A stretch of 64,000 bases of DNA, taken from Aeromicrobium wangtongii. GTDB lineage: Bacteria; Actinomycetota; Actinomycetes; Propionibacteriales; Nocardioidaceae. Position numbers and translations under genes: made by a program. Of the stretch, positions 1,397-16,704 are shown piece by piece. The stretch covers positions 3,286,001-3,350,000 of the forward strand of contig NZ_CP102173.1 in the NCBI RefSeq assembly GCF_024584515.1, read 5' to 3'. Under the pieces are notes generated by a model. That model was not told where the DNA came from. It saw only the letters and a list, made by a program, of their open reading frames with translations, and made no database searches. Every line of letters begins with the position of its first letter. The stretch's first letter is position 1.

Positions 1397-1433
1397 GCGG
1401 AGCAGACGCTGTGACATCGCGCACACTGGAGTG

Positions 1434-2588: not shown

Positions 2589-2598
2589 GCCGGGCGTC

Positions 2599-3201: not shown

Positions 3202-3252
3202 ACCTGCTCCTCGTCCGGCGGATCCGTGTTCCGGATGCCTCTTGCATCATAC

Positions 3253-3273
3253 TCAGATACCGCTAGTATCTGA
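3253..3273. promoter_or_regulatory. Palindromic TetR operator overlapping the -10 box of the monooxygenase
   Basis: Perfect inverted repeat TCAGATAC-cgcta-GTATCTGA. The right arm contains TAGTAT (3264-3269), which sits 7 nt before the GTG at 3277 and would serve as the -10 box of a leaderless transcript. Bound repressor would block RNA polymerase directly. Confidence 0.65.
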
Positions 3274-3276
3274 AAT

Positions 3277-4743
3277 GTGATCTCCAAGGACATCGTCATC
3301 ATCGGCACCGGGTTCTCCGGCATGGGCATGGCCATGAAGCTACGCGCATCCGGCCGCGAGGACTTCGTGATCCTCGAGAAGGCGCAGGACGTCGGCGGAA
3401 CCTGGCGCGACAACACCTATCCCGGGTGCGAGTGCGACATCCCCAGCCACATGTACTCCTTCTCCTACGAGCTCAACGCCGACTGGAGCAAGAGCTTCTC
3501 CGGGCAGGAGGAGATCTGGTCGTACATGCGCAACGTCGCCGACGAGCAGGGCATCCGGCCGTACATCGACTTCGGTGTCGAGGTCACGGGGGCGTCGTGG
3601 GACGAGAGCCGCCAGCGCTGGACGGTCCGCACCGCCGGCGGCGAGGACTACGAGGCCCGCTTCGTGGTCGCCGGGGTCGGCGGGCTGCACATCCCCAACA
3701 TCCCCGAGATCACCGGGGCCGAGACGTTCGAGGGGCCACGCTTCCACTCCGCGACCTGGGACCACTCGATCGACCTGGCGGGCAAGAAGGTCGTCGTGAT
3801 CGGCACCGGCGCCAGCGCGATCCAGTTCATCCCGATCATCGCGCAGGAGGTCGGCCAGCTGACGGTCTTCCAGCGCACTCCCCCGTGGGTGCTGCCCAAG
3901 AACGACAAGCCGATGCCCGAGTGGCGCAAGAAGCTGTTCGCGAAGGTCCCCGCGGCGCAGCGGATCTACCGCGATGCCCTCTACTGGGGCCTGGAGGCGC
4001 GGGCGATCGCGTTCAACGGCCACCTGAACGTCCTGCCGTTCGCCGAGAAGATCGTCACGCGACAGCTGGAGAAGAAGATCCCCGATCCCGAGCTGCGGGC
4101 CAAGCTGACGCCGGACTACCGGCTGGGCTGCAAGCGGGTCCTGCAGTCCAACACGTACTACCCGACGTTCCTGCGCGACAACGTCGAGCTGAGCACCGAC
4201 GGCGTCGCCGAGATCGTCAGCGACGGCGTCATCGACGGCAATGGCGTCAAGCACGAGGCCGATGTCATCATCTACGGCACCGGCTTCCACGTCATCGACG
4301 CCTTCGACTACCTCGACATCAAGGGCCGCGACGGCGTCGACCTGGCGGCCCAGTTCCGCGAGAACGGCGTCGAGACGTACATGGGCATCATGGTCAACGG
4401 CTTCCCGAACCTGGCGTTCATGCTGGGACCCAACACGGCGCTGGGCCACAACTCGGTGGTGTTCATGATCGAGCAGCAGACCAAGTTCATCATCCGGCTG
4501 CTCGACGAGCTGGACGCCCGTGGCGCGGCCGCGGCCGAGCCGACGTGGAAGGCCCAGAGCGAGTTCAACGAGGAGATCCAGCGCCTCGTCGAGAAGGGCA
4601 TCTGGACGCAGGGCGGCTGCACCAGCTGGTACCTGGACAGCCACGGCAAGAACCGCACCATCTGGCCGAAGTTCACCTTCCAGTACTGGTGGGAGACCCG
4701 CAAGGTCGACCCCGCCGCCTTTGCCTGGGAACGCGCTGCCTGA
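3277..4743 (+). CDS. Flavin-containing monooxygenase, Baeyer-Villiger type
   Basis: 488 aa. It has an N-terminal FAD-binding dinucleotide fold (IIGTGFSGMGMA, residues 8-20), a second NADPH-binding fold (VVIGTGASAIQF, about 173-184), and between them FEGPRFHSATWD (151-162), which matches the FxGxxxHxxxW(P/D) fingerprint of type I Baeyer-Villiger monooxygenases. The late GTGFH segment near 335 is also typical. Expected reaction: NADPH- and O2-dependent oxygenation of a ketone to an ester or lactone, possibly a cyclic or steroid-like ketone; substrate not determinable. A divergent TetR gene and an operator suggest substrate induction. No ribosome binding site precedes the GTG start, consistent with a leaderless mRNA. 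Confidence 0.88.
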   Translation: MISKDIVIIGTGFSGMGMAMKLRASGREDFVILEKAQDVGGTWRDNTYPGCECDIPSHMYSFSYELNADWSKSFSGQEEIWSYMRNVADEQGIRPYIDFGVEVTGASWDESRQRWTVRTAGGEDYEARFVVAGVGGLHIPNIPEITGAETFEGPRFHSATWDHSIDLAGKKVVVIGTGASAIQFIPIIAQEVGQLTVFQRTPPWVLPKNDKPMPEWRKKLFAKVPAAQRIYRDALYWGLEARAIAFNGHLNVLPFAEKIVTRQLEKKIPDPELRAKLTPDYRLGCKRVLQSNTYYPTFLRDNVELSTDGVAEIVSDGVIDGNGVKHEADVIIYGTGFHVIDAFDYLDIKGRDGVDLAAQFRENGVETYMGIMVNGFPNLAFMLGPNTALGHNSVVFMIEQQTKFIIRLLDELDARGAAAAEPTWKAQSEFNEEIQRLVEKGIWTQGGCTSWYLDSHGKNRTIWPKFTFQYWWETRKVDPAAFAWERAA

Positions 4744-4755
4744 CCCACCTCCCCC

Positions 4756-4815
4756 CTGAGTGCGACGTTCTCCACGCGGTCCCCGCGTGAGCGGTGCAGG
4801 AAACGTCCCACTCAG
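4756..4815. terminator. Nested bidirectional hairpin between convergent genes
   Basis: Outer arms CTGAGTGCGACGTT (4756-4769) and AACGTCCCACTCAG (4802-4815) pair with one mismatch. Inside the loop a second perfect 7-bp stem, CACGCGG/CCGCGTG (4773-4789), forms. The hairpin lies between the monooxygenase stop and the helicase stop and has no clear T-run. Confidence 0.6.
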
Positions 4816-4827
4816 CGGGGAGGGGGG

Positions 4828-7377
4828 TCAGCGGGGGCCGACGTCCGTCACGGTCACGGCGGCCTCGCCGATCTCGTCGCTGCGGGCCAGGTCGACCGTC
4901 GCGCTGATGCCCCAGTCGCGGTCGCCCTCGGGATCGTCGAAGGTCTGCCGGACGGTCCACGTCTCCGGGCCCTCCTCGACCATGAACAGCTCGGGCCCAC
5001 GTGATCCGGGACCGGTGCCGATGTTGGTCGCGAATCCCGACTCGGCCGGGTACTCCTCGCGGTATGCGGCCATCGCCGCCTGCCAGGCCTCGGCGTCCCA
5101 CTCGGAGTCCGGCTCGAGCGCGGCGAGCTCGGTCCAGCGGCCGAAGGCGGCCAGCTCGACCCGGCGGAACATCGCATTGCGCACCAGCACCCGGAAGGCC
5201 CGGGTGTTGCCGGTGACGGGGCGCGGCGTCTCGCTGGCCATCGCCTGCGGCCGCACCTCCAGGGGGTCGACGCCCGGGGCGATGAGCTGCTCCCACTCGT
5301 CCAGCAGCGAGGAGTCGGTCTGACGGACGAGCTCGCCGAGCCACTCGGTGAGGTCCTCCAGCTCGGTGTTGCGGGCCTTCTCCGGCACGGTGCGCCCCAG
5401 CGTCTTGTAGACGTCCGACAGGTAGCGCAGAACCAGGCCCTCCGAGCGGGCGAGCTGGTAGTCGCCGATCAGCTCGGAGAACGTCATCGCGCGCTCCCAC
5501 ATCTCGCGCACGACCGACTTGGGTCGCAGCTCGTGGTCGGCGACCCACGGGTGCCCGCCGCGGTAGGTCTCGTAGGCCGCGGTCAGCAGCTCCTCGAGCG
5601 GCTTGGGCCAGGTGATCTCCTCGAGCAGCTCCATCCGCTCGTCGTACTCGATGCCGTCCATCTTCATCTCGTTGATCGCCTCCCCGCGGGCCCGGTGGCG
5701 CTGGGCGTTGAGGATCGGCCGCGGGTCGTCGAGCGTCGCCTCGATGACCGACACGACGTCGAGCGCGTACGTCGGCGACTCCCGGTCCAGCAGCTCGAGC
5801 GCCGCGACGGCGAACGGGGACAGCGGCTGGTTGAGCGCGAAGTTGGCCTGCAGATCGATCGTCAGCTGCAGCGTGCGGCCCTCCTCGTCAGGCGGGTCGA
5901 TGCGCTCGACGACCCCGCCGGCCAGCAGGGCCTCGATGATCTCGTCGACCTGCGCCAGCATGCGGTCCTGCGCCTCCTCGGTCTCCCCGCTCTCGCGCAG
6001 CAGGTGCTCGAGGGCCGCCCGCGCGTCGCCGGGTCGCGAGATGACGTCCAGCACCATCGCGTGGCTGACCTTCATGCGTGAGTGGAGCGGCTCGGGGGTG
6101 CCGGTCGAGAGCTTCTCGAACGTGCCCTGCCCCCAGGACACGAATCCCTCCTGGGGCTTCTTGCGGTTGATGCGCTTGAGCTTCTTGGGGTCGTCGCCGG
6201 CCTTGCGGACCAGGCGCGCGTTCTCGATCTCGTGATCGGGGGCCTCGACCACGACGTGCCCGATCGTGTCGTAGCCGGCCCGGCCGGCTCGGCCGGCGAT
6301 CTGCTGGAACTCGCGGACCTGCAGCTGCCGCTGGCGGGTGCCGTCGTACTTGGACAGTCCGCTGAACAGCACGGTGCGGATCGGGACGTTGATGCCCACG
6401 CCCAGCGTGTCGGTGCCGCACACGACCTTCAGCAGTCCCTGCTGCGTCAGCGTCTCGACCAGGCGGCGGTAGCGCGGCAGCATGCCGGCGTGGTGGACGC
6501 CGACGCCCATCCGGATGAGTCGCGACAGCGTCTTGCCGAATGCCGAGGAGAATCGGAAGTCCCCCAGCGCGTCGGCGATCGTGTCGCGCTCCTCGCGGGT
6601 CGCCACCTTGATGCTGGTCAGCGCCTGCGCGCGCTCCAGCGCCGACACCTGCGTGAAGTGGACGACGTAGACGGGCGTCTGGCCGGTCTCGATGAGCTGC
6701 TCGAGGGTCTCCTGCACGGGGGTCGTGACGTACTCGCTGACCAGCGGTACGGGGCGCTCGGTGGACGACACGACCGTCGTCTCGCGACCGGTGCGCCGGG
6801 TCAGGTCCGCCTCGAGCCTCGTGGTGTCGCCGAGCGTGGCCGACATCAGCAGGAACTGCGCCTTCGGGAGCTCGATGAGCGGGACCTGCCACGCCCAGCC
6901 TCGCTCCGGATCTGCGTAGAAGTGGAACTCGTCCATCACGACCAGGCCGATGTCGGCCTCGGCGCCCTCGCGAAGTGCCATGTTCGCCAGGATCTCGGCG
7001 GTCGCGGCGATGATCGGGGCGTCGGCGTTGACCGCCGCGTCGCCGGTGACCATGCCCACGTTCTCGGCCCCGAAGATCTCGCACAGGTCGAAGAATTTCT
7101 CACTCACCAGGGCCTTGATCGGTGCGGTGTAGACACTGCACTCCCCGCGCGCGAGCGCTGCCGCCATCGCGCCGGTCGCCACGAGGCTCTTGCCCGAGCC
7201 GGTGGGGGTGGCAAGGATGACGTTGTTGCCTGCGACGCACTCCAGGATCGCCTCGTCCTGGGCGGGATACATCGTGATGCCGCGGGACTCGACCCACTCG
7301 GCGACGGCTTCGTAGACCGCATCCTCATCGGTGGTGACACCCTTGGGCAGCAGATCGACGAGACGCATGGTCGCCAT
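4828..7377 (-). CDS. DEAD/DEAH-box RNA/DNA helicase with C-terminal DUF3516
   Basis: About 849 aa. The Ski2-like superfamily 2 core has Walker A ATPTGSGKS, motif Ia APIKALVSEKF, DEFH in place of DEAD/H as Walker B, motif III SATLGD, then the second RecA domain with GVGINVPIRTVLFSGL and the QIAGRAGRAG arginine-finger motif VI. The remaining ~400 aa match the actinobacterial DUF3516 extension. Probable ATP-dependent helicase acting on structured RNA or DNA; cellular role unknown. ATG 7377 has GGAGG only 4 nt upstream. ATG 7368 is an alternative, with GACAAT 7 nt before it. It is transcribed divergently from the MDR gene at 7461 and ends facing the monooxygenase. Confidence 0.88.
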   Translation of the reverse strand: MATMRLVDLLPKGVTTDEDAVYEAVAEWVESRGITMYPAQDEAILECVAGNNVILATPTGSGKSLVATGAMAAALARGECSVYTAPIKALVSEKFFDLCEIFGAENVGMVTGDAAVNADAPIIAATAEILANMALREGAEADIGLVVMDEFHFYADPERGWAWQVPLIELPKAQFLLMSATLGDTTRLEADLTRRTGRETTVVSSTERPVPLVSEYVTTPVQETLEQLIETGQTPVYVVHFTQVSALERAQALTSIKVATREERDTIADALGDFRFSSAFGKTLSRLIRMGVGVHHAGMLPRYRRLVETLTQQGLLKVVCGTDTLGVGINVPIRTVLFSGLSKYDGTRQRQLQVREFQQIAGRAGRAGYDTIGHVVVEAPDHEIENARLVRKAGDDPKKLKRINRKKPQEGFVSWGQGTFEKLSTGTPEPLHSRMKVSHAMVLDVISRPGDARAALEHLLRESGETEEAQDRMLAQVDEIIEALLAGGVVERIDPPDEEGRTLQLTIDLQANFALNQPLSPFAVAALELLDRESPTYALDVVSVIEATLDDPRPILNAQRHRARGEAINEMKMDGIEYDERMELLEEITWPKPLEELLTAAYETYRGGHPWVADHELRPKSVVREMWERAMTFSELIGDYQLARSEGLVLRYLSDVYKTLGRTVPEKARNTELEDLTEWLGELVRQTDSSLLDEWEQLIAPGVDPLEVRPQAMASETPRPVTGNTRAFRVLVRNAMFRRVELAAFGRWTELAALEPDSEWDAEAWQAAMAAYREEYPAESGFATNIGTGPGSRGPELFMVEEGPETWTVRQTFDDPEGDRDWGISATVDLARSDEIGEAAVTVTDVGPR

Positions 7378-7428
7378 TGTCCTCCGGCCATCCGGGCCGT
7401 GGACGCGCGCCACCCGCGAATTCCCTAA

Positions 7429-7440
7429 GCAAGCGCTTAC
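7429..7440. promoter_or_regulatory. Possible TetR-type operator
   Basis: GCAAGCGCTTAC contains the perfect 8-bp palindrome AAGCGCTT with outer G/C matches. It sits in the intergenic space between the divergent helicase and MDR genes, 9 nt before a TATCGT -10 box (7449-7454). The core resembles operators of some actinobacterial TetR lipid-catabolism regulators, but no cognate regulator is adjacent. Confidence 0.35.
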
Positions 7441-7460
7441 CGATGCGCTATCGTCGGGCC

Positions 7461-8420
7461 ATGAAGGCGATCCAGATCACATCCCTTGACGGACCCGCAG
7501 CGGTCGAGCTCCTCGACGTCCCCGAGCCCGTGCCGGGCGACGGCCAGGTGCTGATCCGCGTGCACGCGGCCGGCGTCGCGTTCCCGGAGGTGCTGCAGAG
7601 CCGCGGGCTCTACCAGATGAAGCCCGAGCTGCCGTTCACGCCGGGCGCCGAGATCGCCGGCGAGGTGGTCAGCGCCCCGGAGGGCTCCGGCCTCGTCCCC
7701 GGCGACCGCGTCGCGGCCCTGTGCCTGCTGGGCGGCTTCGCCGAGCTGGCCGTCGCACCGGCCACCGAGACGTTCAAGCTGCCCGACAACGTGTCGTACG
7801 AGCAGGGCGCCTCGATCATCTTCAACTACGGGACGGCCTACTTCGCCCTCGTCGAGCGCGGCAAGCTGCAGCCCGGCGAGTCGGTCCTCGTGCAGGGGGC
7901 GGCCGGCGGCATCGGGACGGCGGCGATCCAGGTCGCGAAGGCATTCGGCGCCGGTCGCGTCGTGGCCGTGACCTCGACCGTCGAGAAGGGCGCGGTCGCC
8001 CTCGAGGCCGGGGCGGACGAGTTCGTGCTCGCCGACGGCTTCAAGGACGCCGTCGTGGCCGGCGGCAAGGTCGACATCGTGGTCGACCCGGTCGGCGGCG
8101 ACCGGTTCACCGACTCGCTGCGCTGCCTGGCCGATGACGGCCGCGTGCTGGTCATCGGCTTCACCGCCGGCGAGATCCCGACGGTCAAGGTCAACCGCCT
8201 GCTGCTGAACAACATCTCGGTGGTCGGCGTCGGCTGGGGCGCGTACGTCCTGGCCCGCCCAGGGCACATCGCCGGCGAGTGGGACGCCCTCACGCCGCAC
8301 CTCGAGAGCGGGGCCCTGCGTCCGGTCGTGGGGCCGACGTTCCCGCTCGCCGAGGCGTCCGCCGCGCTGCTGACGCTCGACGAGCGCCGCGCAACCGGCA
8401 AGGTGCTGCTGACCATCTGA
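7461..8420 (+). CDS. Zinc-free MDR oxidoreductase, NADPH:quinone reductase-like
   Basis: 319 aa. It has the GroES-like N-domain (ITSLDGPAAVELLDVPEPVPGDGQ) and a Rossmann domain with VLVQGAAGGIGTAAIQVAKA (about residues 141-160). The zinc-ligand cysteines of alcohol dehydrogenases are missing, and VDIVVDPVGGDRF plus GRVLVIGFTAG are typical of the quinone oxidoreductase/YhdH-like branch. Expected to reduce quinones or enones with NADPH; the physiological substrate is unknown. TATCGT at 7449-7454 lies exactly 6 nt before the ATG and no ribosome binding site exists, indicating leaderless transcription. A possible operator sits just upstream. Confidence 0.85.
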   Translation: MKAIQITSLDGPAAVELLDVPEPVPGDGQVLIRVHAAGVAFPEVLQSRGLYQMKPELPFTPGAEIAGEVVSAPEGSGLVPGDRVAALCLLGGFAELAVAPATETFKLPDNVSYEQGASIIFNYGTAYFALVERGKLQPGESVLVQGAAGGIGTAAIQVAKAFGAGRVVAVTSTVEKGAVALEAGADEFVLADGFKDAVVAGGKVDIVVDPVGGDRFTDSLRCLADDGRVLVIGFTAGEIPTVKVNRLLLNNISVVGVGWGAYVLARPGHIAGEWDALTPHLESGALRPVVGPTFPLAEASAALLTLDERRATGKVLLTI

Positions 8421-8429
8421 CCCACACCG

Positions 8430-8559
8430 CCGACGCGTGGGTTACGCACGCCGACGCGTGGCTTACGCACGCCGACGCGTGGGTTGCGCTCAGCACAACC
8501 CACGCGTCGCGGTTCACAACCCACGCGTCGCGGTTCACAACTCACGCGTCAGCGTTCGC
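8430..8559. repeat. Mirrored array of six 21-bp repeats with an MluI-site core
   Basis: Three direct copies of a 21-bp unit (core CGACGCGTGGGTT at 8431, 8452, 8473) are followed by three copies in inverted orientation (core AACCCACGCGTCG at 8497, 8518, 8539). Copy 2 has one core change and copy 6 two. The array is symmetric about position 8491 and the period is 21 bp throughout, that is two helical turns. It starts 10 nt after the MDR stop codon. It could fold as a large hairpin (terminator) or bind protein on one DNA face. No CRISPR features are present. Confidence 0.9.
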
Positions 8560-8668
8560 TGTCGAGCATCGCCATCTGCTCGGCGGCGTAGCGCGTCCCG
8601 GCGACCTTGTCGGCGGGCATCGCGGCCTCGATCGCAGCGAGCTGGTCGGCGGTCAACGTCACGTCCGC
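8549..8668 (-). pseudogene. C-terminal remnant of an aldo/keto reductase
   Basis: The minus strand encodes about 38 residues (VTLTADQLAAIEAAMPADKV then GTRYAAEQMAMLDSER and a stop). This resembles the last helix and tail of bacterial aldo/keto reductases. Nothing upstream continues the family, because the DUF2461 gene and its promoter occupy that space, so about 280 residues are missing. The stop codon lies inside the sixth repeat of the array. Most likely a decaying gene fragment left by a deletion. Confidence 0.6.
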
Positions 8669-8723
8669 TGCGCCCCAGGCTCTCGGTGGCCACGACCTGC
8701 GCGCCTGACCGTATGGTCGGTAC

Positions 8724-9359
8724 GTGCCTGAGTTCAACGGATTCCCCGAGGCGGCCCTCGACTTCTACGACGACATCGAGATGGACAACACCAAGACGTT
8801 CTGGGAGGCGCACAAGGACGTCTACAGAACCGCCGTGGCCGAGCCCATGAAGGCGCTGACCGCAGCGCTGGCCGACGAGTTCGGCGAGGCGAAGATCTAC
8901 CGGCCGTACCGCGACGTGCGGTTCGCCAAGGACAAGACCCCGTACAAGACCCATCAGGGCGCCTTCGTCGCGAAGGGCCCCTCGACCGGCTACTACGTCC
9001 AGATCGGGGCGCCGGGCGTCCGGGTCGGCGTCGGCTACTACGAGGCGTCCGGGCCCCGGCTGGCCAGCATCCGCGACGCGATCGTCGAGGACCGCCGCGG
9101 CGGCGAGCTCGAGCGGATCATCAAGAAGATGACCGCCTCCGGCTGGGAGCTCGGCGGTGACAAGCTCAAGACCGCGCCCCGCGGCTACGACGCCGACCAC
9201 CCGCGGATCGACCTGCTGCGGCACAAGTCGATGACGCTGGGCAAGTCGTATGGCTTCGACCCGGTCATCCACACCCCCGAGCTCATCGACCGGATCCGCG
9301 CCGACTGGCGAGCTGCGACCCCGTTCGTGGAGTGGGTCCGCACCTACGCCAAGGGCTGA
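8724..9359 (+). CDS. DUF2461 domain-containing protein (TIGR02453 family)
   Basis: 211 aa, the usual family length, covered end to end by DUF2461: FNGFPEAALDFYDDIEMDNTK near the N-terminus, then YRPYRDVRFAKDKTPYKTHQG, and a C-terminal DHPRIDLLRHKS segment. The family is widespread and biochemically uncharacterised; no catalytic residues are agreed. The start is GTG with TATGGT at 8712-8717 exactly 6 nt upstream, hence probably leaderless. It stands alone between the repeat array/aldo-keto remnant and a long hairpin at 9371. Confidence 0.88.
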   Translation: MPEFNGFPEAALDFYDDIEMDNTKTFWEAHKDVYRTAVAEPMKALTAALADEFGEAKIYRPYRDVRFAKDKTPYKTHQGAFVAKGPSTGYYVQIGAPGVRVGVGYYEASGPRLASIRDAIVEDRRGGELERIIKKMTASGWELGGDKLKTAPRGYDADHPRIDLLRHKSMTLGKSYGFDPVIHTPELIDRIRADWRAATPFVEWVRTYAKG

Positions 9360-9370
9360 CTCCGGCCCCA

Positions 9371-9439
9371 AGATTTGGCCGATGATCAACCGTTTCCTCG
9401 TCCGTCAGGGACAAGAATGGTTGTTCATCGGCCAAATTT
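9371..9439. terminator. Long imperfect hairpin downstream of the DUF2461 gene
   Basis: Arms of 21 nt (9371-9391 and 9419-9439, built on ATTTGGCCGATGA) pair at 19 of 21 positions around a 27-nt loop, starting 12 nt after the stop codon. There is no T-run after the stem. It may be a terminator or a mobile-type palindromic element. Confidence 0.55.
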
Positions 9440-9575
9440 CGGCTGGTGGCTTCCCCATGCCCCTCGGCAGATGTCGGTCAGATTCCCAGCATGTGCCCCG
9501 CGGCCTGCCATCGCAGCACTTGCGGCCAGGCCGGGTCGGCGCAACCATGGGGCGACCGACCACAGGGAGCCCCCC

Positions 9576-10079
9576 ATGTACGTCATCATCACGACCGACG
9601 GCTCGAAGCAGTCGTTGCAGGCCGCGCGTTATCTCAAGTCCGTCGCCGATCCGGACACCATCACGTCGATCGCGGTGCTCGCGGTCATCAGTCCTCTCGC
9701 GGCCGTGCCGTTCGCGACCGCCGACAAGGGACGGCAGGACCCGGCGGACATGTCCTTTCGGGAGTCCGCGACGGCTGCCACCAAGGAGGTCGCCGCAATC
9801 CTCGCCGGCTGGGGCCCCAAGGTCACGACCCAGATCCGCAGCGGGTCCCCGGCCTCGGAGATCGTCAAGGCCGCCAAGGCCAAGGACGCCGGTCTCATCG
9901 TCCTGGCCGCCCGCAGCTCGCGCGCCGAAGCCGTCCTGATGGGCTCGGTGGCGCACCGCGTGCTCAACCACGCGCCATGCCCCGTGCTGGTCGTCCCCCC
10001 TGGCACGAAGATCAAGGCCAAGAGCAAGGCCAAGCCGGCCGCGGCCGCCAAGAAGCCGGTCGCCAAGAGCCCTTCGTGA
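9576..10079 (+). CDS. Universal stress protein (UspA family), single domain with basic tail
   Basis: 167 aa. The Usp alpha/beta fold is recognisable from IITTDGSKQSLQAARYL to GSVAHRVLNHAPCPVLVV (about residues 125-145). The G-2x-G-9x-G(S/T) ATP-binding motif is degraded: AARSSRAEAVLMGS lacks the first glycines, so nucleotide binding is doubtful. After residue 147 comes a low-complexity Lys/Ala tail (KAKSKAKPAAAAKKP) that could bind nucleic acid or be disordered. ATG 9576 has AGGGAG upstream. It is unrelated in organisation to the tandem-domain stress protein at 62920. Confidence 0.85.
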   Translation: MYVIITTDGSKQSLQAARYLKSVADPDTITSIAVLAVISPLAAVPFATADKGRQDPADMSFRESATAATKEVAAILAGWGPKVTTQIRSGSPASEIVKAAKAKDAGLIVLAARSSRAEAVLMGSVAHRVLNHAPCPVLVVPPGTKIKAKSKAKPAAAAKKPVAKSPS

Positions 10080-10091
10080 CGGGGAGCCGGC

Positions 10092-11129
10092 TCAGCGCGT
10101 CGGGTCGTCGCCGACCTGGACGAGCAGCTTGCCGAAGTTCTTGCCCTTGAGCATCCCGAAGAACGCCTCGGGAGCGTTCTCGAGGCCCTGGACGATGTCC
10201 TCCTTGTGGCGCAGCGAGCCGTCGGCGATCCAGCCTGCGGCGTCGGCCTGGAACGCCTTGTAGTGCGTCTTGACGAACTCGTTCTGGATGAAGCCGCGCA
10301 CCGTCAGGCTCTTGGTGAGGATCGTCTGCATCAGCCGGGGCGCACGGTCGGGCCCGGGCGGCAGCTCGGTGTCGTTGTAGTGGGCGACGAGCCCGCACAC
10401 CGGGACCCGGGCGTAGGTGTTCAGACGCGGCAGGACCGCATCCCACACGTGACCGCCGACGTTCTCGAAGTAGACGTCGATGCCGTCCGGCACCGCGGCC
10501 TTGAGATCGTCCTTGAACGTCGGCGAGCGGTGGTCCAGGGCCACGTCGAAGCCGAGCTCCTCGAGCCAGGCGACCTTCTGCGCGCCGCCGGCGATGCCGA
10601 CGGCCCGCGCGCCCTTGATGCGCGCGATCTGTCCGACGGCAGAGCCCACGGGCCCGGCCGCTGCGGCCACGACGACGGTCTCACCGGGCTGTGGGCGACC
10701 GATCTCCAGCAGCCCTGCGTACGCCGTGAAGCCCGGCATCCCGAGGACTCCGACCGCGGTCGACACCGGCGCGCGGGACGGGTCGAGCTTGCGGACCTGC
10801 CCGGCCGGCAGCACCCCATACGCCTGCCAGCCCAGGTGCGACAGCACGATGTCACCCGGCACGAGGGACGGGTCGCGGGACTCGACGACCTCGGCCACGG
10901 TGCCGCCCTCCATGACCGCCCCGAGCTCGACGGGCGCGGCGTACGACTTGGCGTCGTTCATGCGTCCGCGCATGTACGGGTCGAGCGAGAGGTAGATCGT
11001 TCGCAGCAGCACCTCTCCCTCAGCGGGTTCGGGCACCGGCACGTGCTCGATCCTGAAGTTGTCGGCGGTCGGCTCGCCATCGGGTCGTGAGGCCAGCAGG
11101 ATGCGGGTGTTCTGGATCGGATCGGTCAC
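10092..11129 (-). CDS. NADP-dependent MDR reductase, leukotriene-B4/prostaglandin-reductase-like
   Basis: 345 aa. The PTGR/curcumin-reductase branch of the MDR superfamily is indicated by LSLDPYMRGRMND near residue 55, VVVAAAAGPVGSAVGQIAR (cofactor fold), VDVYFENVGG-type segment and a C-terminal PEAFFGMLKGKNFGKLLV. Family members reduce alpha,beta-unsaturated ketones or aldehydes with NADPH. I chose GTG 11129 over ATG 11150 because TATCGT (11137-11142) lies 7 nt upstream and homologues begin near TDPIQNTRILLASRP. It is divergent from the SCO6745-like gene, 42 nt away. Confidence 0.85.
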   Translation of the reverse strand: MTDPIQNTRILLASRPDGEPTADNFRIEHVPVPEPAEGEVLLRTIYLSLDPYMRGRMNDAKSYAAPVELGAVMEGGTVAEVVESRDPSLVPGDIVLSHLGWQAYGVLPAGQVRKLDPSRAPVSTAVGVLGMPGFTAYAGLLEIGRPQPGETVVVAAAAGPVGSAVGQIARIKGARAVGIAGGAQKVAWLEELGFDVALDHRSPTFKDDLKAAVPDGIDVYFENVGGHVWDAVLPRLNTYARVPVCGLVAHYNDTELPPGPDRAPRLMQTILTKSLTVRGFIQNEFVKTHYKAFQADAAGWIADGSLRHKEDIVQGLENAPEAFFGMLKGKNFGKLLVQVGDDPTR

Positions 11130-11171
11130 CGTGCCGACGATAACGGGCATCCGTGCACGACACTGGATGAC

Positions 11172-12008
11172 ATGACGCAGAGCAGGCCCTTCTGGCGGGC
11201 GATCGAGGCCATTCACGATGTCGTCTACTTCGCTCCCAGCACGAAGGAGCGGTACGGCGCGATCGGGCTGAAGGGCTTCTGGATGGGGTACGCGGCATCG
11301 AGGTCCGCGGCGGTCGGGACCCCGTCGGCACACCTGGTGACGGCGCTGTTCCACGGCTTCGCCCCGGCACTCGTCCAGCGCGCGATCCCGGACGCCTGGC
11401 AGCTGGCCGACCGCGATGCGGTCCTGGCGGCCCGCCTGGACGTCGCCCGGGACGCACTGGCCCCGGCGCTCGACGGCGCGGACGTCGCGCGGATCGCGCG
11501 CGACCTGGGCACGATCACCTCCCGGCTCGACTTCGCCGGCAAGCCGCTGGCCGCGGCCCACGCCGACCTGCCGACACCGGCGGACGAGATCGGCCGGCTG
11601 TGGCACGCGGCGACGATCATCCGCGAGTACCGCGGCGACTGCCATGTCGCGGTGCTGACCGCCGCCGGCCTGGACGGCGCCGCGGCGAACGCGCTGGCCG
11701 CCGTGACCGGCCTCGTGCCGCCGGGCCAGCTGGACATGCGCGGCTGGACCGAGGCCGAGGCGTCCGAAGCAATCGCGCGCCTCGCCACCCGCGGCTGGGT
11801 CGACGCCGCCGGGGCGGTCACCGACACCGGCCGCGCGGCCCGGGCGCAGATCGAGGACACGACCGACCGCGTCTGCGCGGCGGGCTTCGACCGGGAGGCG
11901 ACCGGCCGGGCCATCACGGTGGAGGAATCGGTCGTGGCGGTCGCCCGCCGGCTCGAGGAGCTCGGCGCGATCACGTACCCCAACCCGGCCGGCGTCCAGC
12001 GTCCCTGA
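11172..12008 (+). CDS. SCO6745-family protein of unknown function
   Basis: 278 aa, mostly alpha-helical and alanine-rich. FWRAIEAIHDVVYFAPS followed by KGFWMGYAASRSAAVG is characteristic of this actinobacterial family. The segment around residues 185-225 (GWTEAEASEAIARLATRGWVD) looks like a winged-helix/MarR-type module, which suggests DNA binding or protein interaction, but no function is established. It lies divergent to the MDR reductase gene and convergent with the fusion gene at 12024. No ribosome binding site is obvious before the ATG. Confidence 0.75.
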   Translation: MTQSRPFWRAIEAIHDVVYFAPSTKERYGAIGLKGFWMGYAASRSAAVGTPSAHLVTALFHGFAPALVQRAIPDAWQLADRDAVLAARLDVARDALAPALDGADVARIARDLGTITSRLDFAGKPLAAAHADLPTPADEIGRLWHAATIIREYRGDCHVAVLTAAGLDGAAANALAAVTGLVPPGQLDMRGWTEAEASEAIARLATRGWVDAAGAVTDTGRAARAQIEDTTDRVCAAGFDREATGRAITVEESVVAVARRLEELGAITYPNPAGVQRP

Positions 12009-12023
12009 ACACCGGCCGGACGG

Positions 12024-14987
12024 TCAGCGTCCGCGCCAGACCGGCTCGCGTCCCTCGGCGAAGGCCGCGACTCCCTCGCGGGCGTCATCGGACAAGATGA
12101 CCGGTGAGGCGAGGATGCTCTGCTGCTGGAAGGCGTCATCGAGGTCCCAACCGGGCGACTCGTCGATCATCTTCTTGCCGACCGACACGCTCAGCGGCGC
12201 GTTGGCGGCGATCCGGGTGGCCAGGTCGATCGCGACCTCGAGCGCCGATCCCGGCTCGGTGACCCGGTTGACCAACCCCAGCTCGGCCAGCCGGGCAGCC
12301 GGGAGCGGCTCGCCCAGCAGCGTCAGCTCCATCGCGATGTTGCGCGGCAACCGGTCGCGCAGACGCATGACGCCACCCGCAGCGGCGATCAGTCCGCGGC
12401 GGACCTCCGGGATGCCGAACTCGGCGTCCTCGGCCGCGACGATCAGGTCGGCGGCCAGCGCGAGCTCGCAACCGCCGGCCAGCGCGCTGCCCTCGACCGC
12501 GGCGATGAGCGGCTTGGTCGGCGGCTGGCCGGTGAGTCCCAGCGGACCACGGCGCTCGGTGACCGGGAACTCGCCCCGGGCCGCGGCCTTGAGGTCCATG
12601 CCCGCGCAGAACGCACCGCCGGCCCCGGTCAGCACGATGACCCGCACCGTGTCGTCGGCCTCGGCATCGTCGATCGCCAGCTCCAGCGCTGCGGCGGTGC
12701 GGGCGTCGATCGCGTTGCGCGCCTCGGGTCGATCGAGGGTCACCACCGCCACGGCCCCCTCACGGCGCACCTTCACCGGTGCCGACGGCGGCTCCGGCAG
12801 CTCCGCGATCTTGCGGCGAAGCACCGAGATCTCGCCGCCGGACAGCCGCAGCGTGCGACCGATCGGGTCGCCGTCGAGTACGAACGCGATGATCTCGGGG
12901 GTGTCGCTGCGCAGCAGCACCCGGTCGCCGTTCGGCGTCAGGACGCTGAGCACCGCCGCCTCGGGGGCGCCGTCGCGCGCATAGGGCACCGTGGTCGCCT
13001 CGACCACGACATCGCCCTCGTACGAGCGCAGCACGCGGCGCGCGGGCGGACGCTCGACCATGGGCCGCAGGTGCTCGAAGGCGCGCTCCGGCGGCTGGGC
13101 TGAGTACAGGCCCACCGAGTGCTTGGTCGCGTACCAGCCGAGTGACGTCGACAGGCCCGTGGCGGTCGGGTCGGCGCGCAGGATCGGGACCAGGGTCGCG
13201 ATCGCGTGGCTGCCGTACCCGTTGCCCGGCCCGCCGGCGAAGGTCAGTCCACCGGTCACCGACAGGGGGCGCTCGGGATCGTCCACCGGCAGGCCCAGCG
13301 CGTCCGCGCCGATCTGCACCGCAGCCGGGAAGCAGGAGTACAGGTCGATGTGCTTGACCTGGTCGATCGTGAGCCCGGCGTGCTCGAGCGCCCCGCGGCC
13401 GGCGGCACGGATCGCGGGTGACGTCGACAGGTCGGCCCGCTCCGACACGAACCACTGATCGGTCGCCGAGGCGCCGGCCAGCACGAAGACCCACTTGTCC
13501 TGGGCGATGCCCGCTGCCTGGGCAGCCGCGACGCTGGTCACGACGATGCCCGAGGCGAGGTCGACCTGCAGGTTCGCGCACATCAGCTTCGTGTACGGCT
13601 CGCTGATGGCCCGGTTGGAGGGGGTGGGGCTCGCCAGCTCGTCCGCGGGGACCTCGGTCGGGCTCCACGCGTACGGGTTGTCCGCGGCGATCGCGGACAT
13701 GCGCGACCACAAGCCCGAGATCGCCTCCCGGTGCTGCGGCACGTCGTGGCCGCGCCGGTGGCGGACGGCCGACTCCATCAGCGAGTAGACGTACACCGGG
13801 GCGCCGAGCCCCACGGCCGTCTCGATCTCGTTGTTGGCGACCCGGTCGACGCCGACCACGCGGTCCGGGGCGATGTCGCCGTCCTGCTCGGGCCAGTCCG
13901 GCGTCTGCCCGTCCTTCTGGACGGCGGCCAGGGTCGATCCCGCCTCGGCCCCGGCCACCAGGACGATCTGCGACCGGCCCGAGGCGATCGCGGCCGCGGC
14001 CTCGTTGACCAGCAGCTGTGAGCCGTCGCCGCCGTAGGGCGTCGACTGCACCCGCTCGTTCGGCGTCGCGCCGACCGCCTCGGCCACGAGGGCCGACTGG
14101 TCGCGGTAGGTCCACGAGGCGCTGGGGACGGCGTACACCGCATCGGCCGCACGCAGCAGCTGCTCGCCGGCGCCGCTGTCCTCGGCGGCGGCGCGCAGCG
14201 CCTGCGCCGCGAGGGCGACGGGATCGTTCGCCGGTTGGGGCACCCGCTGCACGACCTGTCCGACACCGACGACGACGGGCGTCCGCGGGTCGAGCATCCG
14301 CCCGCTGGCCTCGTGGAGCACCGGCTCGTCGCGCACGGTCCAGGCCGGACGCGCGCCGGCCCCGGTGCCCATCGCGGCGAGTCGGTCGGCCGAGACGGCC
14401 AGGGCCGCGTCGATGCTGCGGACGACGGTCGTGCCGATGGGGCCGCGCAGGGGCGGGCCGTCCATGCCGACGTCGACCCGCAGCACCGATCCGGTGCCGT
14501 CCGGCGCGACGGCGCACCACAGGGCCAGCACGATGCCCATCGGGCCGGTGCCCTGCAGCTCGAGTCCGCGGCTCGTGACCGATGCCGCGGTCCACCGCAC
14601 CTCCGCCGGGATGTCCATCAGCAGGATCTGCTGGGCGAAGGTGTCACCTTCGGCCAGGCGTCCGGGGGGATCACCACGCCAGGCCGCGTGCAGGGAGAAC
14701 CACTCCGGCGCCCGGCCGAAGTCGGCGATCGCCTCCGCGAGCTGGTCCGGCGGGGTCGCCGAGGACGCCACGGCCACGCTGCGACGGCTGAAGTCCTCGA
14801 GGCCCGTGGGCGGGTCCAGCGTCACCGAGCCCCCGGCCGGCACGGGTGCCTGCGCACCGGAGTCGCCGGGCCGCAGCGATGACAGCAGCGCCTTGCGGGT
14901 CTCGGGGTTGCGGGCCATGCCGGCGACGGCAGAGGCGGTTCCCGCCAGTTGCTTGGCGCGGCGTTGGAGAGGACTTCTGGAGCTCAT
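12024..14987 (-). CDS. Three-domain fusion: SRPBCC - thiolase-like - enoyl-CoA hydratase
   Basis: 987 aa in one uninterrupted frame. Residues about 1-60 are a basic leader. About 65-205 resemble an SRPBCC/polyketide-cyclase-like lipid-binding domain. About 235-735 form an SCP-x/acetyl-CoA acetyltransferase-type thiolase (TPVVVGVGQVVQRVPQP, GGLTFAGGPGNGYG) with its own C-terminal OB-like segment. About 738-987 are a full crotonase (LDRPEARNAIDARTAAALE, GAGGAFCAGMDLKAAA oxyanion loop, GCELALAADLIVAAED). Predicted to hydrate and cleave a CoA ester, with the SRPBCC part perhaps presenting a hydrophobic substrate. No NAD-dependent hydroxyacyl dehydrogenase is included. Start ATG 14987 has GGAAG upstream. 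The divergent TetR gene at 15066 is the likely regulator. Confidence 0.82.
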   Translation of the reverse strand: MSSRSPLQRRAKQLAGTASAVAGMARNPETRKALLSSLRPGDSGAQAPVPAGGSVTLDPPTGLEDFSRRSVAVASSATPPDQLAEAIADFGRAPEWFSLHAAWRGDPPGRLAEGDTFAQQILLMDIPAEVRWTAASVTSRGLELQGTGPMGIVLALWCAVAPDGTGSVLRVDVGMDGPPLRGPIGTTVVRSIDAALAVSADRLAAMGTGAGARPAWTVRDEPVLHEASGRMLDPRTPVVVGVGQVVQRVPQPANDPVALAAQALRAAAEDSGAGEQLLRAADAVYAVPSASWTYRDQSALVAEAVGATPNERVQSTPYGGDGSQLLVNEAAAAIASGRSQIVLVAGAEAGSTLAAVQKDGQTPDWPEQDGDIAPDRVVGVDRVANNEIETAVGLGAPVYVYSLMESAVRHRRGHDVPQHREAISGLWSRMSAIAADNPYAWSPTEVPADELASPTPSNRAISEPYTKLMCANLQVDLASGIVVTSVAAAQAAGIAQDKWVFVLAGASATDQWFVSERADLSTSPAIRAAGRGALEHAGLTIDQVKHIDLYSCFPAAVQIGADALGLPVDDPERPLSVTGGLTFAGGPGNGYGSHAIATLVPILRADPTATGLSTSLGWYATKHSVGLYSAQPPERAFEHLRPMVERPPARRVLRSYEGDVVVEATTVPYARDGAPEAAVLSVLTPNGDRVLLRSDTPEIIAFVLDGDPIGRTLRLSGGEISVLRRKIAELPEPPSAPVKVRREGAVAVVTLDRPEARNAIDARTAAALELAIDDAEADDTVRVIVLTGAGGAFCAGMDLKAAARGEFPVTERRGPLGLTGQPPTKPLIAAVEGSALAGGCELALAADLIVAAEDAEFGIPEVRRGLIAAAGGVMRLRDRLPRNIAMELTLLGEPLPAARLAELGLVNRVTEPGSALEVAIDLATRIAANAPLSVSVGKKMIDESPGWDLDDAFQQQSILASPVILSDDAREGVAAFAEGREPVWRGR

Positions 14988-15005
14988 GTGCACTTCCCGT
15001 ACGAT

Positions 15006-15033
15006 CAGACTGTTTCTGTCATGGTGCAGTCTG
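15006..15033. promoter_or_regulatory. Inverted repeat between the fusion gene and its TetR gene
   Basis: CAGACTG (15006-15012) and CAGTCTG (15027-15033) form a perfect 7-bp inverted repeat with a 14-nt spacer in the 78-nt divergent promoter region. This is a plausible TetR operator but has not been matched to a known motif. Confidence 0.4.
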
Positions 15034-15065: not shown

Positions 15066-15695
15066 ATGTCCGAGAAGACCGCGCCCGGTCAGAACGCACG
15101 CCGGTCGCAGCGCGATCGCACGGCGGCGACCCGCTCGCGTGTCATCGACGCGACCATCAGCTCGCTGGTCGAGCTGGGCCACGCCGCGACAACGATCTCG
15201 CGCGTGCAGGAACGCGCCGGAGTCGCCCGCGGGACGCTCCTGCACCACTTCCCGACCCGGGCGTCGCTGCTGGTCGCCGTGGTCGAGGACGTCGCGAACC
15301 GTCGCCTGCACGTCCTGGCCGACGAGGTGGAGCACTCCGGGGCCGCGGGCTGGGACGCTGCCGTCGACCTGGTCTGGAAGGACCTGCAGAGCCCGGCGTT
15401 CCTGGCGGTGCTGGAGCTGTGGGTCGCAGCACGCACGGACGCTGACCTGCGGGCAGCCCTGGTACCGGTCGAGCGGACGGTCTTCGAGTCGGTCCACCGC
15501 GCCGTCACGACGGTCGCGGCCGATGACGACCCGCGGGTGCCGACCCTCGTGCAGTTCACGATCGACCTGCTCACCGGATCGACCATGACGACCCTGCTGG
15601 TGGACGACGACGGTTCGCAGCGGGTGCTGCTGGACCGCTGGCGGCGTGCCATCCCGGTCCTGCTGGGCCGCTCGGGGGCCGAGACCTGGGGCTGA
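15066..15695 (+). CDS. TetR-family transcriptional regulator
   Basis: 209 aa. The TetR helix-turn-helix covers about residues 18-66 (TRSRVIDATISSLVELGHAA, then RAGVARGTLLHHFPTRASLL). The C-terminal domain has no recognisable ligand signature. It is divergent from the SRPBCC-thiolase-crotonase fusion, and an inverted repeat lies between them, so it is the obvious candidate regulator of that gene. CAAGGT lies 6 nt before the ATG, so this start could be leaderless; the 47 nt downstream of the stop lead directly to the LigD-like polymerase gene. Confidence 0.9.
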   Translation: MSEKTAPGQNARRSQRDRTAATRSRVIDATISSLVELGHAATTISRVQERAGVARGTLLHHFPTRASLLVAVVEDVANRRLHVLADEVEHSGAAGWDAAVDLVWKDLQSPAFLAVLELWVAARTDADLRAALVPVERTVFESVHRAVTTVAADDDPRVPTLVQFTIDLLTGSTMTTLLVDDDGSQRVLLDRWRRAIPVLLGRSGAETWG

Positions 15696-15741: not shown

Positions 15742-16704
15742 ATGGCAGCGCCCGGCTCCCCCGCCGTCGAGATCGAGGTGGACGATCAGGTCGTCCGCGT
15801 CTCCAACCCCGACCGGGTCTACTTCCCGGACCACGGCTGGACGAAGCTCGACCTGGTGCAGTACTACCTCGCGGTCGGCGAACCGATCGTCAACGCTCTG
15901 TTCGAGCGCCCGTGCATGCTGCACCGCTTCCCCAAGGGTCTGGCCGGCGACAAGGTGCACCAGAAGAAGGTCCCGGCCGGCGCCCCACCCTGGCTCGAGA
16001 CCGTCAGCGTCCACTTCCCCCGGTTCGATCGTGACGTCAACGAGCTGTGCGTGACCTCGGTCGCCGCCGTGATCTGGGCGGTGCAGATGTCGACCGTCGA
16101 GTTCCACCCCTGGAACAGCCGGCGCGCGGACGTCGAGAAGCCCGATGAGTGGCGCATCGACCTCGACCCGGGTCAGGAGTGCGACTTCGCCACCGTCCAA
16201 CGGGTGTCGCACGTCGTGCACGAGGTGCTGGACGAGCTCGGCGCGACCGGGTTCCCCAAGACCTCCGGCGGCTCAGGGCTGCACGTCTACGTGCGCATCC
16301 CGCCCGAGCACGGGTTCACCGACGTGCGCCGCGCCGCGCTGGCCTTCGCCCGCGAGGTCGAGCGGCGATCCAGCGAGGTCACCACGACCTGGTGGCGCAA
16401 GGACCGCGATCCGAAGAAGCTGTTCGTCGACTACAACCAGAACGCCCGCGACCACACGATCGCCGCGGCGTACTCCGTGCGCGGCTTCCCGGACGGACGG
16501 GTGTCGACGCCGGTCGAGTGGGGCGAGATCGACGACCTGGATCCGCACGACTTCACGATCGCGACGGTGCCGGACCGCCTCGCCCGCCTGGGCGACCTGC
16601 ACGCCGGCATCGACGACGCGGTGTTCGACATCGCGCCGCTGCTGCAGTGGGCCGAGCGCGACGAGGCCGACGGCGCGGAGCCGCCGGCCGACCCCGAGGG
16701 GTAG
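15742..16704 (+). CDS. Stand-alone LigD-type polymerase/primase domain protein
   Basis: 320 aa, the length of the archaeo-eukaryotic primase-like PolDom found in bacterial NHEJ ligase D. Key elements are MLHRFPKG (59-66), the catalytic DLD at 140-142, TSGGSGLHVYV (174-184), and FVDYNQN with D230. These bind the divalent metals and nucleotide for templated or gap-filling synthesis with a preference for ribonucleotides in characterised members. Neither the ligase nor nuclease domain is attached, and ku is not nearby, so it resembles mycobacterial PolD-type paralogues rather than LigD itself. TACCGT (15730-15735) is 6 nt before the ATG, indicating a leaderless start. Confidence 0.88.
   Translation: MAAPGSPAVEIEVDDQVVRVSNPDRVYFPDHGWTKLDLVQYYLAVGEPIVNALFERPCMLHRFPKGLAGDKVHQKKVPAGAPPWLETVSVHFPRFDRDVNELCVTSVAAVIWAVQMSTVEFHPWNSRRADVEKPDEWRIDLDPGQECDFATVQRVSHVVHEVLDELGATGFPKTSGGSGLHVYVRIPPEHGFTDVRRAALAFAREVERRSSEVTTTWWRKDRDPKKLFVDYNQNARDHTIAAAYSVRGFPDGRVSTPVEWGEIDDLDPHDFTIATVPDRLARLGDLHAGIDDAVFDIAPLLQWAERDEADGAEPPADPEG

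What the first reader, a model, noticed from the sequence alone, without database searches (positions are those of the whole stretch)
12024..14987. Natural SRPBCC-thiolase-crotonase three-domain fusion
A single 987-aa frame links a lipid-binding-like domain, a complete SCP-x-type thiolase with its accessory domain, and a complete crotonase. Thiolase and hydratase are usually separate or in hydratase-dehydrogenase fusions; here the dehydrogenase is absent. A retro-aldol or side-chain cleaving enzyme like those of sterol degradation is possible. The frame is continuous; domain identities come from motifs.
Basis: partly seen in the sequence, partly recalled or inferred. Interest (0 to 1): 0.74.

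Follow-up and report, generated by a model that had tools for sequence, protein, structure and literature searches.

The report
Lipid-binding, aldolase-like, hydratase fusion enzyme
Many soil actinobacteria make one 100-kDa protein that joins a fat-binding module, a thiolase-shaped module without the thiolase catalytic residues, and a working-looking hydratase, and its conserved residues suggest it cuts carbon chains the way steroid side-chain aldolases do, which would give a first function to a long-orphaned enzyme family.

Summary
One intact 987-codon frame at 12024-14987, on the MINUS strand, encodes SRPBCC + thiolase-like + crotonase domains. It is not an assembly artefact: 49 of 295 Nocardioidaceae-type genomes carry the same three-domain gene (54-80% identity), as do Nocardia, Pseudonocardia, Thermocrispum, Antrihabitans and Actinoplanes. 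Some Nocardia carry the two enzyme domains as genes overlapping by 4 bp.

The identity is partly wrong. The middle domain is not a complete SCP-x thiolase. It belongs to the thiolase-like protein (TLP) family, whose solved member MsTLP1 has no thiolase activity. The nucleophilic Cys is Gly and the GHP His is Gly. Instead it has YSCF: Tyr550 and Cys552 are invariant in all 109 TLPs aligned. By alignment these match the catalytic Tyr of the steroid aldolase Ltp2 and the Tyr302/Cys304 dyad of the bile-acid aldolase Sal. The crotonase keeps both catalytic Glu positions.

Best explanation (0.5): a bifunctional enoyl-CoA hydratase/retro-aldolase with an acyl-chain-binding module, analogous to Shy-Sal or ChsH-Ltp2 but with an unrelated hydratase. 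A local TetR with a conserved operator probably regulates it. TLP and crotonase fused at least twice independently. No activity is shown; the substrate is unknown.

The parts
12024..14987 (-). SRPBCC-TLP-crotonase fusion gene, 987 aa, ATG at 14987, stop 12024-12026
   Evidence: orthologues
14808..14987 (-). N-terminal extension, residues 1-60: predicted basic helices 6-25 and 28-38, low confidence
   Evidence: mean pLDDT at or below 50 over residues 1-50
14370..14786 (-). SRPBCC (START-like, helix-grip) domain, residues about 68-206
   Evidence: Pfam PF10604 75-205; AF2 model of 52-228, pLDDT 85.3; best match MSMEG_5634, Z 18.1, 27% identity
13092..14297 (-). thiolase-fold TLP core, residues 231-632
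   Evidence: MsTLP1 4egv Z 45.6, Ltp2 6ok1 Z 39.5, Sal 9myr Z 39.0; phmmer 4egv E 2e-73
14025..14033 (-). GGD 319-321, at the place of the thiolase CxS nucleophile motif
   Evidence: G319 and G320 invariant in 52 fusions, 49 stand-alone TLPs and 8 TLP1-type rows
13329..13340 (-). YSCF 550-553, at the place of thiolase HDCF, Ltp2 YDHF and Sal YDCY; Tyr550 and Cys552 are the proposed retro-aldol dyad
   Evidence: invariance; PMC12329534
13227..13235 (-). GGP 585-587, at the place of the thiolase GHP oxyanion-hole motif
   Evidence: correspondence to MsTLP1 GGL from PMC3406046
12843..13070 (-). TLP1_add_C beta-barrel domain, residues 640-715
   Evidence: Pfam PF18313 E 8.1e-11, above its cut-off
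12027..12776 (-). crotonase (enoyl-CoA hydratase) domain, EchA1-like, residues 738-987
   Evidence: Pfam PF00378; NCBIfam NF006100 348 bits against cut-off 282; EchA1 structures 53-56% identity
12405..12467 (-). stretch holding the two crotonase catalytic Glu positions, Glu841 (12465-12467) and Glu861 (12405-12407)
   Evidence: invariant in 52 of 52 fusions; spacing of 20 as in rat ECH Glu144/Glu164 (established knowledge)
14992..15012 (-). candidate TetR operator CAGTCTGATCGTACGG, overlapping the ribosome-binding region of the fusion gene
   Evidence: (single exact site in the genome)
15066..15695 (+). divergent TetR-family regulator gene
   Evidence: Pfam PF00440; related TetR next to fused and split versions

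Best explanation
The protein is a bifunctional enoyl-CoA hydratase/retro-aldolase with a built-in acyl-chain-binding domain. The SRPBCC domain holds the hydrophobic acyl part of the substrate. The crotonase domain adds water to a 2-enoyl-CoA to give a 3-hydroxyacyl-CoA. The TLP domain then splits the C2-C3 bond by retro-aldol cleavage: Tyr550 takes the proton of the 3-hydroxyl, and Cys552 returns a proton to the CoA-thioester enolate. The products are acetyl- or propionyl-CoA and an aldehyde or ketone, so no 3-hydroxyacyl-CoA dehydrogenase and no thiolysis are needed. A divergent TetR repressor that senses a substrate or product controls the gene. Shown here: the fusion and its conservation, absence of thiolase catalytic residues, intact crotonase Glu positions, alignment of Tyr/Cys with the aldolase residues, the TetR/operator co-occurrence, and independent TLP-crotonase fusions. 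Inferred: the reaction, the order of steps, the substrate class and the regulation.
For: TLP, not thiolase: phmmer and AF2/VIA put residues 225-721 with MsTLP1, whose thiolase activity was tested and absent (PMC3406046). G319, G320, Y550, C552, F553, G586, N589, H594 and K622 are invariant in 52 fusions, so this is not a decaying pseudo-domain; Y550 and C552 are invariant in all 109 TLPs of both subfamilies. Profile alignments place YSCF on Ltp2 Y294-DHF and on the HDCF of a true thiolase (6esq); Ltp2 YDHF aligns with Sal YDCY, whose Tyr302 and Cys304 are the essential retro-aldol residues (PMC12329534). Crotonase Glu841 and Glu861 are invariant. Functional coupling: TLP and crotonase are fused in two TLP subfamilies with different crotonases and are genes overlapping by 4 bp in Nocardia and by a few bases in Conexibacter. 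Pathway context in several Nocardia, Actinoplanes and Pseudonocardia loci: CoA ligase (FadD2/FadD12-like) and acyl-CoA dehydrogenase genes next door. SRPBCC: closest solved relative MSMEG_5634 binds long acyl-AcpM chains (PMC9014085).
Against: No activity of any TLP has been shown. MsTLP1 was tested only as a thiolase, and its CoA groove is inferred from superposition. Sequence identity to Ltp2 is about 24%, and the dyad correspondence is by alignment, not by superposed coordinates. Sal and Ltp2 act with a DUF35 partner; TLPs carry a different C-terminal barrel, and MsTLP1 is a monomer. The Asp of YDCY/YDHF is Ser (36) or Ala (16) here. Sal Gln347/Gln352, thought to tune the Cys, were not mapped. 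Some loci also carry an SDR gene, which could be a 3-hydroxyacyl-CoA dehydrogenase and would fit thiolytic beta-oxidation better. In the window the gene stands alone, with no CoA ligase or acyl-CoA dehydrogenase beside it. Most TLPs are not linked to a crotonase.
Confidence: 0.5

Rival explanations
1. The TLP domain is a non-catalytic acyl-CoA-binding scaffold. It and the SRPBCC domain hold or hand over a bulky substrate, and the crotonase does all the chemistry (hydration, isomerisation, or hydratase-lyase cleavage in its own site as in feruloyl-CoA hydratase-lyase).
For: None of the thiolase catalytic residues is kept; MsTLP1 had no thiolase activity (PMC3406046). Crotonase Glu positions are invariant.
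Against: Tyr550, Cys552, His594, Lys622 and the glycine motif are invariant across the fusions, and Tyr/Cys also across a very long branch between TLP subfamilies, which is more than a scaffold needs. Most TLPs stand alone without any crotonase.
Confidence: 0.22
2. The enzyme runs the other way: aldol condensation of an acyl-CoA enolate with an aldehyde on the TLP domain, then dehydration on the crotonase, to build an enoyl-CoA or a branched lipid, with the SRPBCC domain holding the growing chain.
For: Retro-aldol reactions are reversible in principle (established chemistry). The nearest solved SRPBCC, MSMEG_5634, works with FAS-II acyl chains (PMC9014085). The gene stands alone in the window, outside a catabolic operon.
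Against: CoA ligase plus acyl-CoA dehydrogenase neighbours in other genomes and TetR control look catabolic. The characterised thiolase-fold aldolases of this kind act in steroid side-chain degradation (PMC12329534).
Confidence: 0.13
3. It is an ordinary beta-oxidation fusion: hydratase plus thiolase, with thiolysis carried by Cys552 or another Cys and the dehydrogenase supplied by a separate SDR.
For: NCBIfam names the family acetyl-CoA acetyltransferase (below cut-off). An SDR gene lies near some copies.
Against: CxS, HDCF His and GHP are all replaced; the tested relative has no thiolase activity (PMC3406046); the Cys of HDCF is not the thiolase nucleophile.
Confidence: 0.06
4. Artefact: separate genes joined by a sequencing or assembly error.
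For: Split, adjacent TLP and crotonase genes exist in Nocardia and Conexibacter.
Against: Closed genome; 49 of 295 family genomes and many other genera have one open frame of similar length.
Confidence: 0.01

Closest known systems
[quoted passage not shown] PF18313 (PMC3406046)
   Same: Same fold with the same C-terminal barrel; GG for CxS, YSCF, GG(L/P) for GHP; Z 45.6 over 443 residues.
   Different: MsTLP1 is a stand-alone monomer of a different TLP subfamily, 36% identical. Here the domain is fused to SRPBCC and crotonase. MsTLP1 NGG is LGW here.
Steroid side-chain aldolases Ltp2-ChsH2(DUF35) (6OK1) and Sal-Shy(DUF35) (9MYR)
   Same: Thiolase fold without the thiolase nucleophile; catalytic Tyr (and Cys in Sal) in the same motif; works with an enoyl-CoA hydratase and needs no dehydrogenase; Z 39.5 and 39.0.
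   Different: Hydratase is MaoC-type in a separate DUF35 protein, not a crotonase in the same chain; partner barrel is zinc-finger DUF35, not TLP1_add_C; no SRPBCC; about 24% identity to Ltp2.
Crotonase family, EchA1 subfamily (PRK08252; Rv0222 6LDZ, 5KJP)
   Same: 53-56% identity in the structural matches, both Glu positions kept, above the NCBIfam cut-off.
   Different: EchA1 is a stand-alone protein; here it is the C-terminal quarter of a fusion.
SRPBCC acyl-binding protein MSMEG_5634/Rv0910 (7WA9; PMC9014085)
   Same: Helix-grip fold, Z 18.1, 27% identity; a hydrophobic pocket for acyl chains.
   Different: MSMEG_5634 binds acyl-AcpM and is not fused to enzymes.
SCP-x (SCP2-thiolase) and hydratase-dehydrogenase multifunctional enzymes
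   Same: Thiolase fold plus lipid-binding domain (SCP-x); multifunctional acyl-CoA enzymes.
   Different: No SCP2 domain, no thiolase catalytic residues, no dehydrogenase domain.

Membership tests
Thiolase-like protein (TLP) family | thiolase core with TLP1_add_C barrel | tested here: met
   PF18313 above cut-off; 4egv matched over core and barrel, model 231-723
Thiolase-like protein (TLP) family | Gly for nucleophilic Cys, YSCF for HDCF/NEAF, GG for GH in GHP | tested here: met
   against PMC3406046 section 12
Thiolase-like protein (TLP) family | NGG in place of CxG (listed in PMC3406046 for a small set of TLPs; not universal, so not taken as defining) | tested here: inconclusive
   LGW at 616-618 here; position 618 is G or W among stand-alone TLPs
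SCP2-type thiolase (SCP-x) | catalytic Cys of CxS | tested here: not met
   GGD 319-321 invariant in the fusions
SCP2-type thiolase (SCP-x) | His of HDCF and GHP | tested here: not met
   Tyr550 and Gly586 invariant in the fusions; alignment to HDCF of 6esq
SCP2-type thiolase (SCP-x) | SCP2 domain | tested here: not met
   no SCP2 hit in Pfam at E up to 1; the C-terminal parts are TLP1_add_C and crotonase
Thiolase-fold retro-aldolase (Sal/Ltp2) | catalytic Tyr in the YD(H/C)(F/Y) position | tested here: met
   Tyr550 aligned to Ltp2 Tyr294 and via Ltp2 to Sal Tyr302
Thiolase-fold retro-aldolase (Sal/Ltp2) | second catalytic residue: Sal Cys304 or Ltp2 Tyr344 | tested here: inconclusive
   Cys552 aligns with the Sal Cys304 position; the equivalent of Ltp2 Tyr344 lies outside the aligned fragment and was not mapped
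Thiolase-fold retro-aldolase (Sal/Ltp2) | DUF35 partner | tested here: not met
   no DUF35 hit in the protein; none recognised among the genes beside it
Thiolase-fold retro-aldolase (Sal/Ltp2) | retro-aldol activity | not testable with these tools
   needs an enzyme assay
Crotonase / enoyl-CoA hydratase | ECH fold and two catalytic Glu, oxyanion-hole Gly | tested here: met
   PF00378 E 7e-52; Glu841, Glu861 and Gly838 invariant
SRPBCC superfamily | helix-grip fold | tested here: met
   PF10604 above cut-off; model matches 7wa9 with Z 18.1 over 143 residues
SRPBCC superfamily | binding of a hydrophobic ligand | not testable with these tools
   needs a binding assay

The most novel reading that the evidence does not exclude
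The TLP family, orphan since the 2012 structure and present in mycobacteria, many other actinobacteria and some Proteobacteria, is a family of acyl-CoA retro-aldolases using a Tyr-Cys dyad. The three-domain fusion is a self-contained hydratase-aldolase that shortens a bulky acyl-CoA without dehydrogenase or thiolase: an alternative to the last half of beta-oxidation in one chain.
Probability: 0.4. Interest if true: 0.78.

Novelty: new variant of a known kind. Interest (0 to 1): 0.56.

Why it matters
TLPs have had a solved structure but no function since 2012, and M. tuberculosis has one (PMC3406046). The fusion names their likely partner reaction (enoyl-CoA hydration) and, with the 2025 Sal paper, the likely chemistry (Tyr/Cys retro-aldol). 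One purified protein can test it, because hydratase and cleavage can be assayed in the same tube and separated by point variants. If right, it adds a dehydrogenase-free way to cut acyl-CoA chains and a single-chain biocatalyst for carbon-carbon cleavage.

Tried and rejected
Artefact of assembly or frame error: rejected by closed genome and many orthologues. Complete SCP-x thiolase: rejected on catalytic residues. Sterol-specific role: no sterol genes recognised beside the gene. The genome has HsaC-like extradiol dioxygenases below the curated cut-off and one Ltp2-like protein at 37%, so sterol use by the organism is open but not tied to this gene. SRPBCC as a separate gene near split loci: none found with a profile at E up to 1. 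SRPBCC remnant upstream of the two-domain Nocardia crassostreae copy (L104): no convincing match. Crotonase next to mycobacterial TLP1 or TLP2: none found; TLP2 in one genome abuts a CaiB-type CoA-transferase-like gene. Literature search for this architecture: no paper holds thiolase, enoyl-CoA hydratase, SRPBCC and fusion together; a second search gave no relevant paper. 'Rv1867' with 'thiolase' (my own guess at the M. tuberculosis TLP locus tag): no paper. Other matches to crotonases in the genome were set aside as paralogues. Model coordinates cannot be read here, so the Tyr-Cys geometry was not measured.
Full report
OBSERVATION. The genome is a single closed 3.69-Mb contig.

DOMAINS. Pfam gives Polyketide_cyc2 (SRPBCC) at 75-205, TLP1_add_C at 640-715 and ECH_1 at 742-986. 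NCBIfam puts the middle near the PRK08257 'acetyl-CoA acetyltransferase' models (below cut-off) and the end in PRK08252 crotonases (above cut-off). An AF2 model built from 58 aligned sequences has mean pLDDT 88.2, pTM 0.77. VIA alignment of its thiolase part gives MsTLP1 (4egv) Z 45.6 over 443 residues, Ltp2 (6ok1) Z 39.5 and Sal-Shy (9myr) Z 39.0; Foldseek gives EchA1 structures for the crotonase. The SRPBCC domain folded alone (pLDDT 85.3) matches MSMEG_5634 with Z 18.1 and 27% identity, then ligand-binding START-like proteins. MSMEG_5634 binds acyl-AcpM with long acyl chains (PMC9014085).

IS IT A THIOLASE? No, judging by its residues. The MsTLP1 paper lists the thiolase fingerprints lost in TLPs: Cys89 to Gly, NEAF/HDCF to YSCF, GHP to GGL, CxG to NGG, and reports no thiolase activity (PMC3406046). 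Here GGD 319-321, YSCF 550-553 and GGP 585-587 stand at the first places. Across 52 distinct three-domain fusions, G319, G320, D321, Y550, C552, F553, G586, N589, H594, K622 and H623 never vary, whereas position 551 is Ser or Ala. Y550 and C552 are also invariant in 49 stand-alone TLPs and in 8 TLP1-type rows. Such constancy speaks for an active site, not for a dead domain.

WHAT MIGHT IT DO? A profile of TLPs finds the steroid aldolase Ltp2 in the PDB at E 3.9e-10 and Sal at 1.6e-4. The alignments put YSCF on Ltp2 YDHF and on HDCF of an acetoacetyl-CoA thiolase (6esq); Ltp2 YDHF aligns with Sal YDCY. In Sal, Tyr302 and Cys304 of YDCY are the essential base and acid of retro-aldol cleavage; in Ltp2 the Tyr of YDHF is the base; the Sal authors propose that T. 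brucei SLP (YDCF) may be an aldolase too (PMC12329534). TLPs carry the same Tyr-x-Cys. A hydratase fused to such a domain makes the 3-hydroxyacyl-CoA that a retro-aldolase needs, which would explain why no dehydrogenase is present. This is inference; no TLP has been assayed as an aldolase in the papers I could search.

DISTRIBUTION AND ORIGIN. Three-domain fusions: 49 of 295 sampled genomes of the family; in a phylum-wide sample of 396, one beside the window's own; in GTDB contigs also Nocardia, Antrihabitans, Thermocrispum, Pseudonocardia and Actinoplanes. In nine named Nocardia loci and in G365 the TLP and crotonase are separate neighbouring genes, most of them overlapping by 1-4 bp, and in Conexibacter they overlap slightly; no SRPBCC gene is near the named split loci. 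A second set of TLP-crotonase fusions without SRPBCC has TLPs 50-59% identical to MsTLP1 but 34-38% to the window protein. The TLP tree separates the two sets by a long starred branch, and the crotonase tree joins the window type with the split Nocardia genes (97, starred) apart from the other fusions. So TLP and crotonase were fused at least twice, with different crotonases. The trees are 'quick' ones with SH-aLRT only.

NEIGHBOURHOOD AND CONTROL. A TetR gene (15066-15695, +) lies divergently 78 bp from the fusion. Its relatives sit next to 7 fused and 7 split loci in the named set. A palindrome-like site CAGTCYGATCRKAC lies just before the start codon of the fusion. It occurs once in the window (0.02 expected in shuffles) and once in the genome as an exact AAACAGTCNGATCNNACNG site. 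Among 52 fused loci the site is there in 21 of 29 with an adjacent TetR and 0 of 23 without (Fisher p 4e-8; loci are related, so the true significance is lower). In two distinct loci (L015, L051) the TetR and fusion genes run in one direction, and in L084, an Aeromicrobium copy, they overlap by 4 bp. In several Nocardia, Actinoplanes and Pseudonocardia loci an acyl-CoA dehydrogenase and/or a FadD2/FadD12-like CoA ligase lie within a few genes, with an SDR in some. In the window itself the gene stands alone between the TetR gene and a convergent SCO6745-family gene.

NOVELTY. Each domain belongs to a known family. The architecture was not found in the papers searched, though copies are widespread in genomes, so it is a new variant of a known kind, not a new kind. 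What would be new is the function of the TLP family.

LIMITS. Atomic coordinates of the model could not be read, so the dyad geometry is untested. Residue correspondences rest on profile alignments near 24% identity to Ltp2. Substrate class is open: sterol, terpenoid or branched fatty acyl-CoA are all compatible.

Noticed in passing
L169 (G000:C1:3148000-3160000), about 1095-11978: A second, conventional set in the same genome: an Ltp2-like thiolase (37% identity) with a separate DUF35-like gene, two MaoC-like genes, an acyl-CoA dehydrogenase and a CaiB-type gene (names other than the Ltp2 match by eye).
   Followed up: partly
L165 and L166 (G000:C1:3350001-3388000), right of the window: Two clusters with HsaC-like extradiol dioxygenases (265 and 242 bits, below the TIGR03213 cut-off), flavin monooxygenase-like and hydrolase-like genes: ring-cleavage pathways.
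   Followed up: partly
L174 4404-8179: In a probable Mycobacterium genome (G706) the TLP2-like gene abuts a long CaiB-type CoA-transferase-like gene; in three other genomes TLP1 lies near sucCD.
   Followed up: partly
L058 and L059, upstream of the fused gene: Different palindrome AAACAGTCAYGCCTGACTTTTT where the usual TetR gene is not adjacent; perhaps another regulator's site.
   Followed up: no
window 15742-16704, +: LigD-polymerase-like gene (by eye) next to the TetR gene, also kept beside it in L009, L010 and L038.
   Followed up: no
window 10092-11150, -: NADPH-dependent curcumin/dihydrocurcumin reductase, above the NCBIfam cut-off.
   Followed up: no
window 3277-4743, +: Flavin (Baeyer-Villiger-like) monooxygenase with a divergent TetR-like gene at 2599-3201.
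   Followed up: no
L104 7953-10367: Nocardia crassostreae copy of the window-type fusion lacks the SRPBCC domain, which suggests that this domain can be lost.
   Followed up: partly
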